Shown piece after piece: positions 40,530-42,205 of a DNA stretch of 64,000 nt. The position numbers were made by a program, and so were the translations under genes. The first letter of the stretch is position 1. Each line of letters starts with the position of its first letter. Source of the stretch: Bartonella sp. WD12.1 (GTDB taxonomy: Bacteria; Pseudomonadota; Alphaproteobacteria; Rhizobiales; Rhizobiaceae); the NCBI RefSeq assembly GCF_002022415.1, contig NZ_MUBG01000001.1, positions 1,054,001-1,118,000 on the forward strand, written 5' to 3'. The notes under the pieces were generated by a model. The model did no database searches. It was not told the DNA's origin and worked only from the letters and a program-made list of their open reading frames with translations.

Positions 40530-41110
40530 ACACCATTCTCTATTAAATGAGGCACAATATTTTGAGCAGCATACCTATAAACATTATTGATATGCCTTTA
40601 CACCATTCCTCAATATCAGATAGCTTTAAAATAAAACAATTATCGTGGGCCTACTGTTCGTGCAAAAATTGCCACACCACAAATCATACTATTATAATCA
40701 ACTGTAACGACTCGAATTTCTCCCATAAAAAGGAGAGATAGTTCTTAAGACGATACCAGATGTATCAACCCAGCTGTTATAATTGCTTATTGAACAGACT
40801 GAACATTCTTGTTGCCTTATAATTGAGAAAAAATTTTTTTAAACATATTTTATACTTACATATTTCTTATGACCATTTTCATTCAGCATAGCTGTTACTG
40901 TATAAAATACAAAAAAGCCAGTTAATATTATTGTTGTGATTTTATTCCCAAATGCATCAAAACTTATAGTTGTTATAAATAATTCTACTTAAAGAAAAAC
41001 CATAAAATGGACAGAATATTCATCACAAAATTTTTATTTTGTGGTCTATAGCGTGCAATTCAAAAAATTATTTTTAGCCATCGAAAAAAGCATTCTTATA
41101 AATACCATTC
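40530..41110. other. Spacer CDF transporter-small RNA
   Basis: Several short open frames here (for example 40547-40741) lack ribosome sites and family features. No gene is supported. A strong structured element begins at about 41111. Confidence 0.55.
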
Positions 41111-41151
41111 CCATAAAAAAGAATCTGGGCATTGGGGACCCAGATTCTTTT
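41111..41151 (-). terminator. Intrinsic terminator of the candidate small RNA
   Basis: A 13-bp perfect stem with a 9-base loop is followed on the minus strand by TTTTTT. On the plus strand the tail is only TTTTCCCC, so the minus strand is the better-supported direction. Confidence 0.8.
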
Positions 41152-41241
41152 CCCCTAGAAAGGGATTACAGTCTTAGGAAATAGCGGGGACCTAAGACAC
41201 TGTACCCGAATAAAACACTGTTATGTATTGCACTCGGTAAT
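41111..41241 (-). ncRNA. Candidate small RNA with two C-rich hairpin loops
   Basis: Read on the minus strand this unit has a sigma-70-like promoter, about 40 bases of leader, a hairpin with 8-bp perfect arms (GTCTTAGG/CCTAAGAC, 41191-41198 with 41171-41178), a short linker, and a second hairpin with 13-bp perfect arms (41139-41151 with 41117-41129). A run of six T follows. Both loops begin with UCCCC directly after a GG. Exposed C-rich loops able to pair with Shine-Dalgarno sequences are typical of trans-acting alphaproteobacterial small RNAs. No open frame with a ribosome site lies inside. The exact 5' end is estimated. No Rfam family was recognised by eye. Confidence 0.65.
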
Positions 41242-41246
41242 TGTGT

Positions 41247-41273
41247 TTTATACCTATGGTTGTATAATGTCAA
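41247..41273 (-). promoter_or_regulatory. Sigma-70-like promoter of the candidate small RNA
   Basis: On the minus strand there is a perfect -35 TTGACA (41268-41273). It is followed after 15 bases by TATAAA (41247-41252), or after 17 bases by TAAAAC as an alternative -10. This predicts a start near 41240. Confidence 0.6.
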
Positions 41274-41389
41274 CATATATTCTACTTTAAATTTAAAAAT
41301 AATACATCTTTTTTGTCTCCCCATTCAATCACGAAGACACAGCATTCACTACGCTGGTGATTTAGAAAAAATAATGTTAGAAGCTCTAT

Positions 41390-42205
41390 ATGACTTTGAA
41401 TATCACCACAATCCACGAAACTGATGACCCACGCTTGAAAGCTTATCGTAATATTCATGAAAAAGATCTCGTTGGACGACAACATCAATTTATTGCTGAA
41501 GGCAAAGTAGTATTGTCAGCATTACTGCATTCAAAAGATTTTTCTGCCTCGTCATTGCTTATTGTAGCAGCACGCCTTCTTGGAATTATGCCTATTTTAA
41601 AAGCAACAAAACCAACCTGTCCTATTTATTGTGTTCCGCAAAAAGTCATGGACAATATTGCTGGTTTTCATGTTCATCGTGGTATGCTTGGTATCGGTGA
41701 ACGTAAAACTTTACCCTCATTACAAGATTTTTTAAAAAATCTTCCAGAAAAAACCTTGGTGCCAGTTTTATGCGGTATTTCTAATCATGATAATATGGGT
41801 GCCATTTTTCGCAATGCAGCTGCTTTTGCCTGCCATGGTATTATTGTTGATAAAACTTCATGCGATCCGCTATATCGAAAAGCAATTAGAGTTTCTGTTG
41901 GTGCTGCTCTAAAAATACCTTATACACAAGGCACTGATATTGATAGCATTATTGAAGCTTTAAATGATGCGGACTTTCATCTTTATGCCCTTTCCCCTTC
42001 TGCTCCACGCTATCTCAAAGAAGCAAAATCAACAAAACGCACTGCAATTATTTTGGGAGCGGAAGGTGATGGTTTGCCAGCTCATATTCTACAAAAATCA
42101 GAGACTTTACGCATTCCTATGGCTTATGGTTTTGATAGCCTCAATGTTGCTACCGCATCAGGTATTGCATTAGCACATTTTGCTGACTTTGATAAACTCA
42201 ACTAA
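41390..42205 (+). CDS. TrmH/SpoU-family RNA 2'-O-methyltransferase
   Basis: This 271-residue SPOUT methyltransferase has an N-terminal substrate-binding segment (RQHQFIAEGKVVLSALL) and a C-terminal knot domain with CGISNHDNMGAIFRNAAAF, ILGAEGDGLP and IPMAYGFDSLNVATASGIAL. It modifies a 2'-hydroxyl of rRNA or tRNA using SAM. The target cannot be fixed (RlmB-, TrmH- and TsnR-like members look alike). It is transcribed away from the candidate small RNA, sharing its upstream region. Confidence 0.9.
   Translation: MTLNITTIHETDDPRLKAYRNIHEKDLVGRQHQFIAEGKVVLSALLHSKDFSASSLLIVAARLLGIMPILKATKPTCPIYCVPQKVMDNIAGFHVHRGMLGIGERKTLPSLQDFLKNLPEKTLVPVLCGISNHDNMGAIFRNAAAFACHGIIVDKTSCDPLYRKAIRVSVGAALKIPYTQGTDIDSIIEALNDADFHLYALSPSAPRYLKEAKSTKRTAIILGAEGDGLPAHILQKSETLRIPMAYGFDSLNVATASGIALAHFADFDKLN

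What the first reader, a model, noticed from the sequence alone, without database searches (positions are those of the whole stretch)
41111..41273. Compact promoter/two-hairpin/terminator unit: probable unannotated small RNA
On the minus strand a perfect TTGACA and a TATAAA element are followed, with no open frame, by two perfect hairpins (8-bp and 13-bp arms) and six T. The loop of each hairpin starts with UCCCC right after GG, so the molecule shows the same C-rich loop twice. Repeated exposed C-rich loops are a known design for small RNAs that pair with ribosome-binding sites. The unit lies alone in a spacer upstream of a divergent RNA methyltransferase gene. A regulator of several mRNAs is the favoured reading.
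Basis: partly seen in the sequence, partly recalled or inferred. Interest (0 to 1): 0.78.

Follow-up and report, generated by a model that had tools for sequence, protein, structure and literature searches.

The report
Conserved Bartonella small RNA, probably BbsR9
This stretch encodes a small regulatory RNA found in every Bartonella genome examined here, very probably the one already studied in one species as BbsR9, and its almost unchanging C-rich loop looks like the part that pairs with the start of messages such as nuoF.

Summary
The minus-strand unit 41273-41115 has one match in each of 71 genomes of the genus searched. Its hairpins covary: 19 of 31 pairs change on both sides, 0 of 500 shuffles reach this. 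The loop UCCCCGCUAUUU is exact in 54 of 71 and has one extra C in 14. No Rfam family reaches its threshold.

It is very probably the ortholog of BbsR9 of B. bacilliformis (PMC7717549), with RNA-seq, northern, 5' RACE and in vitro binding to nuoF, gcvT and ftsH. Against 302 gene starts of the genome taken to be that strain, the loop ranks nuoF 1st and gcvT 2nd (ftsH 182nd); 0 of 3000 permuted loops put both in the top two.

Not found in print by my searches: in 14 genomes (B. apis, B. tamiae and kin) the RNA lies between rsm22 and trpE, beside the trp attenuator, with probable homologs there in Phyllobacterium, Paenochrobactrum and Brucella; in the other 57, trpE is absent from the spot but the RNA stays. 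Best reading: a stand-alone trans-acting RNA that pairs with ribosome-binding sites.

The parts
41268..41273 (-). -35 element TTGACA
   Evidence: TTGAC kept in 71 of 71 aligned rows
41249..41266 (-). semi-palindromic promoter-spacer element TATACAACCATAGGTATA, candidate operator
   Evidence: RCAAY present in the spacer of 44 of 57 rows; related motif near homologs in other genera; the strict motif occurs once in the own genome
41247..41252 (-). -10 element TATAAA, 15 nt from the -35 hexamer
41115..41240 (-). small RNA, about 125 nt; 5' end inferred from the promoter, not measured
41203..41239 (-). 5' hairpin (sequence variable; 3 base pairs tested across the genus)
   Evidence: helix 1: 86.6% of cells paired, 2 of 3 pairs with changes on both sides; weakest helix
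41167..41204 (-). seed hairpin: outer stem TACAG/CTGTA and inner stem TCTTAGG/CCTAAGA
   Evidence: helices 2 and 3: 97.2% and 95.1% of cells paired, 7 of 10 pairs with changes on both sides
41179..41190 (-). nearly invariant loop UCCCCGCUAUUU, proposed mRNA-pairing seed
   Evidence: GGTCCCCGCTATTTCC exact in 54 of 71, one more C in 14, other changes in 3; target ranks
41153..41164 (-). small hairpin CCCTTTCTAGGG
   Evidence: helix 4: 97.7% of cells paired, 3 of 5 pairs with changes on both sides
41115..41151 (-). intrinsic terminator hairpin with loop UCCCCAAUG and T run
   Evidence: helix 5: 13 pairs, 99.6% of cells paired, 7 with changes on both sides

Best explanation
A stand-alone, trans-acting small RNA of about 125 nt, the ortholog of BbsR9 of Bartonella bacilliformis. 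It starts from a sigma-70-type promoter and ends at its own intrinsic terminator. The seed hairpin exposes UCCCCGCUAUUU, which pairs with G-rich stretches at or near the ribosome-binding site of target mRNAs (nuoF the clearest; gcvT in B. bacilliformis); a second region (5' part and stem) pairs with ftsH. Most likely effect: less translation of those mRNAs. Shown here: structure, conservation, promoter and terminator letters, complementarity. Published for BbsR9 in B. bacilliformis: transcript and in vitro binding. Inferred: identity with BbsR9, expression in this species, direction of the effect in cells.
For: 71 of 71 genomes, one match each. Covariation in 19 of 31 pairs, 0 of 500 shuffles. 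Mean pairwise identity 0.84 in the core against 0.26 just downstream. B. bacilliformis-like ortholog (G007, one contig of 1,445,021 bases, the size I recall for strain KC583): 135-137 nt fold at -46.9, the figure printed for BbsR9 in the Fig 6 legend of PMC7717549. Accessibility-corrected ranks among 302 gene starts: gcvT 2, ftsH 4, nuoF 29; none of 11 shuffled RNAs has all three within 29. Rank product 42 among 100 starts, 0 of 38 shuffles as low. Loop alone: nuoF 1, gcvT 2 of 302; 0 of 3000 permutations put both in the top two. The ftsH duplex is long, as the paper says of its ftsH region. nuoF site within the best 3.3% of background in 23 of 30 loci examined (of 70 genomes with nuoF), the window's own included.
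Against: BbsR9 coordinates sit in supplements I could not open. The closest shuffle had rank product 72 against 42. nuoF is 29th when opening costs are counted; ftsH is 182nd for the loop alone; a first, cruder scoring had gcvT 251st of 302. For the start region -30..+10 gcvT is 17th, and 3 of 200 permuted loops put nuoF first. The gcvT site is not generally conserved, and 7 of 30 nuoF sites are weak. Published binding is in vitro only. Promoter spacing is 15 nt.
Confidence: 0.85

Rival explanations
1. A cis-acting leader or attenuator of the next gene on the same strand, the cation-efflux gene 40529-39615, about 590 nt downstream.
For: Same strand; efflux gene found beside it in 56 of 57 loci of this arrangement. 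In the 14 other loci trpE is the neighbour (same strand and 305 nt away in L062).
Against: The next gene differs between lineages while the RNA stays; trpE has its own attenuator between the RNA and the gene; a strong conserved terminator. BbsR9 gave a single northern band of the expected size (PMC7717549, discussion).
Confidence: 0.06
2. An RNA whose conserved loop is a protein-binding site (sponge) and not an mRNA seed.
For: The loop is nearly invariant in 71 genomes while at least one target site, gcvT, drifts.
Against: The loop is C-rich, not the GGA type of CsrA/RsmA (recalled); matches to published BbsR9 targets are far better than for permuted loops.
Confidence: 0.06
3. Not BbsR9 but another of the conserved B. 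bacilliformis small RNAs; a trans-acting RNA all the same.
For: The paper counts five RNAs widespread in Bartonella, BbsR9 among them, and I could not see their coordinates.
Against: Three published targets and the folding energy point to BbsR9.
Confidence: 0.1

Closest known systems
BbsR9 (BB092) of Bartonella bacilliformis KC583 (PMC7717549)
   Same: Conserved in Bartonella, sigma-70 promoter and intrinsic terminator reported, folding energy -46.9, and targets nuoF, gcvT and ftsH, which rank high for the ortholog here
   Different: Studied in one species and described as found in Bartonella; coordinates not seen by me; expression in the window's species unknown
RcsR1, Rfam RF02552 (that it is rnTrpL, the trp attenuator RNA of Sinorhizobium meliloti, is recalled)
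   Same: Sits upstream of trpE; lies next to this RNA in trpE-bearing relatives
   Different: A separate element downstream of this RNA, with a Trp-codon leader peptide in L062; this RNA does not match RF02552
GsrN of Caulobacter (PMC5869019, passages read)
   Same: Exposed C-rich loop pairing with G-rich mRNA sites, the loop its most conserved part
   Different: Tied to the general stress response, activates katG; BLAST hits limited to Caulobacteraceae, with further putative homologs proposed in Rhizobiaceae; not compared by sequence here
PmaR of Agrobacterium (PMC6234868, passages read) and AbcR RNAs (recalled)
   Same: Rhizobiales small RNAs acting through C-rich or anti-Shine-Dalgarno stretches
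   Different: PmaR is restricted to Agrobacterium and one Rhizobium and acts mostly positively, mostly away from the ribosome-binding site; no ar15 match here at E up to 10
Brt1-9 of B. henselae (PMC5387305, abstract and section 3.1 read)
   Same: Bartonella small RNA
   Different: 194-203 nt, nine copies, each followed by a Trp (HTH) regulator gene; this one is about 125 nt, single copy, other neighbours

Membership tests
BbsR9 orthologs | Same locus as BbsR9 in KC583 | not testable with these tools
   coordinates are in supplementary files, no look-ups allowed; predicted place G007:C1:1051916-1052089
BbsR9 orthologs | pairs with nuoF, gcvT and ftsH of B. bacilliformis (computed complementarity) | tested here: met
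   ranks 29, 2, 4 of 302; loop-only ranks 1, 2, 182; cruder ranks 25, 251, 1
BbsR9 orthologs | folding energy -46.9 (Fig 6 legend) | tested here: met
   -46.9 for starts giving 135-137 nt, -48.1 to -50.3 for longer starts, weaker for shorter ones; different program from the paper, and the published 5' end was not seen
BbsR9 orthologs | sigma-70 promoter, intrinsic terminator, conserved in other Bartonella | tested here: met
   hexamer spacing 15 nt in the window
Rfam RcsR1 (RF02552) | covariance-model match | tested here: not met
   no match on the RNA; the sub-threshold RcsR1 matches lie downstream of it
Rfam ar7, ar9, ar14, ar15 (AbcR), ar35, ar45 | covariance-model match | tested here: not met
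   none among the 9 matches at E up to 10 in 40550-41400; ar35 has no match in the own genome
Brt family | 194-203 nt, multicopy, followed by a Trp HTH gene | tested here: not met
   one match per genome, about 125 nt, neighbours cation-efflux and SpoU-type methylase genes; no direct sequence comparison with Brt
trans-acting C-rich-loop small RNAs (works like) | regulation of targets in cells through the loop | not testable with these tools
   complementarity only; EMSA published for BbsR9

The most novel reading that the evidence does not exclude
The RNA belongs to an undescribed family that stood beside the tryptophan attenuator (between an Rsm22-family gene and trpL-trpE) in the ancestor of Bartonella, Brucella, Phyllobacterium and kin; when the lineage of the 57 genomes lost trpE from the spot, the RNA alone was kept as a trans regulator with a frozen seed loop, so it outlived the operon it once neighboured. 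It may originally have linked tryptophan supply to respiration.
Probability: 0.5. Interest if true: 0.65.

Novelty: new member of a known kind. Interest (0 to 1): 0.5.

Why it matters
It ties a raw-sequence guess to an RNA that has probably been seen at the bench, points to its likely seed (a loop hardly changed in 71 genomes), and suggests a history: a neighbour of the trp attenuator in related genera that stayed when trpE was lost from the spot. It offers a family definition (structure, loop, promoter element) that Rfam lacks, and makes target and regulator questions testable in the bee symbiont Bartonella apis.

Tried and rejected
Rfam matches near the unit (ncr1015 26 bits of 60, RsaD, rliE, GadY and others) are far below their gathering scores and were taken as chance. 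Five family-search loci (L080, L081, L083, L084, L086, from 4 genomes) match little beyond a terminator and lie in unrelated places; not counted as homologs. The idea that the RNA is itself the trp attenuator was dropped: in L062 the Trp-codon leader peptide lies downstream of it, as do the RcsR1 matches. The idea that the promoter element marks a regulon: in the own genome the strict motif occurs once, at this promoter; with up to one mismatch there are 6 places against 3 for the control pattern. In the genus 31 of 71 genomes have 36 exact places, 16 of them at this promoter; I looked at 16 of the 20 others and by eye most read as coding sequence, not tested further. Conservation of the gcvT site: not found in general, with start codons placed by a fixed offset. 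Plasmid and phage collections: no match to the unit. Searches for papers on an RNA upstream of trpE in Brucella or Rhizobiales showed none by listing; one Brucella melitensis RNA-seq paper, main text searched for trp, trpE and anthranilate, has none. BbsR9 occurs in one paper of the library only.

Full report
WHAT IS THERE. The 8-bp hairpin sits within a longer one (TACAG...CTGTA), a weaker hairpin lies before it and a 4-bp one after it; the second named hairpin is the terminator. The strand folds better than each of 200 shuffles. The two promoter hexamers are 15 nt apart, shorter than usual. A conserved reading frame is unlikely: aligned RNA lengths vary from 124 to 137 nt in 71 genomes; no further coding test was made.

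CONSERVATION. A search of 71 genomes of the genus found one match in each. GGTCCCCGCTATTTCC is exact in 54 of 71, has one more C in 14, and differs in 3 (one U missing, one extra A, one changed C), while its stems vary in a compensating way. The terminator loop is less fixed: GGTCCCCAATG exact in 53 of 71, often GGTTCCC elsewhere. On a 31-pair structure 96.9% of cells pair, 19 pairs show changes on both sides, none of 500 shuffles reaches any of the five measures, and sliding the partners lowers all of them; related sequences make the shuffle count only a guide. Mean pairwise identity: core 0.84, promoter 0.66, 5' hairpin 0.63, a stretch before the promoter 0.58, just downstream 0.26.

NEIGHBOURS AND ORIGIN. 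Pfam names the window neighbours SpoU methylase and Cation_efflux, and those of L062 Rsm22 and anthranilate synthase component I / chorismate-binding. Within 3-kb loci, 57 genomes have the efflux gene (56) and trmH traces (54) and no trpE or rsm22 (0 and 0); the other 14 have trpE and rsm22 (14 and 14) and neither of the first two. trmH has under 85% single-frame coverage in 20 of the 57, so the RNA outlasts it. trpE was absent from both genomes of the 57-type group included in the draw (G000, G015); the others were not searched whole. In the 14, RNA and trpE share a strand in the loci read (one search printed six); in L062 a Trp-codon leader peptide lies between them, and sub-threshold RcsR1 matches mark that attenuator in 9 of 14. 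That the 57 are the mammal-infecting lineage is recalled.

HOMOLOGS BEYOND THE GENUS. A model of the RNA searched in 297 family genomes matched 13 at E up to 0.01: 5 of the genus and 8 others, of which I accept 4 (G142 with two tandem copies between rsm22 and trpE; G075 beside the efflux gene; G257 and G313 upstream of RcsR1 and trpE) and reject 4 as terminator-only. trpE was found in 104 of 111 family genomes. Of 70 of those upstream regions given to the model, 2 gave clear matches (G142, G120, 30 loci) and one a poor one (E 0.55, 40 loci). Of 80 named trpE loci I gave 73: all 3 Bartonella given and 7 of 70 others matched at E up to 1 on the trpE strand: Paramesorhizobium deserti (2.7e-7), Paenochrobactrum (5.5e-6), Phyllobacterium leguminum (1.5e-5), Falsochrobactrum ovis (0.0012), Rhizobiales AFS055504 (0.0023), Brucella tritici (0.043), Brucella pecoris (0.3). 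The last two rest on position, promoter motif and terminator as much as on score. Among 23 loci looked at by motif, three more (two Pseudochrobactrum, Phyllobacterium salinisoli) carry motif and terminator at that place without a model match. The family is patchy outside Bartonella.

IDENTITY WITH BbsR9. Of PMC7717549 I read the abstract, part 1 of the results and section 22, part 1 of the methods, the discussion and passages; supplements and figures were closed. BbsR9: sigma-70 promoter, intrinsic terminator, conserved in several Bartonella, single northern band, 5' RACE, expressed in liquid medium below 37 C, folding energy -46.9, in vitro binding to ftsH, nuoF and gcvT but not to trmD, hflK or RS02100 (the last three were not tested here). 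The ortholog in G007 (contig length 1,445,021; that this is KC583 is recalled) folds at -46.9 for 135-137 nt. Against 302 gene starts (299 called by my own ORF rule in 400 kb, two overlapping the ftsH locus removed, plus the three targets) gcvT ranks 2, ftsH 4 and nuoF 29 with accessibility counted; an earlier cruder scoring gave ftsH 1, nuoF 25, gcvT 251. In one search none of 11 shuffled RNAs had all three within 29; the rank product among 100 starts was 42, none of 38 shuffles as low, the nearest 72. The loop alone over -75..+75 puts nuoF 1st, gcvT 2nd, ftsH 182nd of 302; of 3000 permuted loops 16 put nuoF first, 74 put gcvT in the top two, none both. Over -30..+10 it gives nuoF 1, gcvT 17, ftsH 203, and 3 of 200 permuted loops put nuoF first. 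I take identity as very probable, not proven.

TARGET CONSERVATION. nuoF was found in 70 of 71 genomes; of the 30 loci held, 23, the window's species among them, have a start-region site within the best 3.3% of the G007 background, mostly GGUGGGG right before AUG; 7 do not, including both trpE-type loci in the sample (G059, G060). A G-rich ribosome-binding site could be kept for its own sake: 23 of 302 starts, nuoF included, have GGGG in -15..-1. The gcvT site is not general in the 30 loci seen. ftsH was not examined beyond G007.

PROMOTER ELEMENT. ATACAACCATAGGTAT-like letters lie in the spacer in the window (RCAAY in 44 of 57 spacers), AACC(T/A)(T/A)AGGTTGT(A/G) just before -35 in 14 of 14 trpE-type genomes, and ATRCAACC-type motifs before homologs in other genera. 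This suggests a regulator's site; the regulator is unknown.

LITERATURE LIMITS. Only open-licence PMC papers were searchable; absence statements rest, mostly read as listings.

Noticed in passing
window 41390-42205 and loci L001-L057: trmH beside the RNA has under 85% single-frame coverage (broken or not found) in 20 of 57 Bartonella loci, a decaying neighbour.
   Followed up: partly
L077/L098 (G142) and L078 (G075): Two tandem copies of the RNA in one small genome and a likely second copy in another (17.5 bits, E 0.0022).
   Followed up: partly
window 41249-41266: Semi-palindromic promoter-spacer element with relatives before homologs in other genera; in the 14 trpE-type genomes it sits inverted just upstream of -35. 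Possible operator of an unknown regulator.
   Followed up: partly
L059, L061, L064-L070: RcsR1 matches below the Rfam gathering score lie upstream of trpE in Bartonella and relatives; the Rfam model or its cut-off may be too narrow for them.
   Followed up: no
L158 (own genome, contig C1): DNA about 66% identical to a plasmid PemK/MazF-type toxin-antitoxin pair.
   Followed up: no
L258 (Brucella grignonensis), upstream of trpE: Motif-like sequence and other hairpins at the same place, no model match; may be a diverged copy of the RNA.
   Followed up: no
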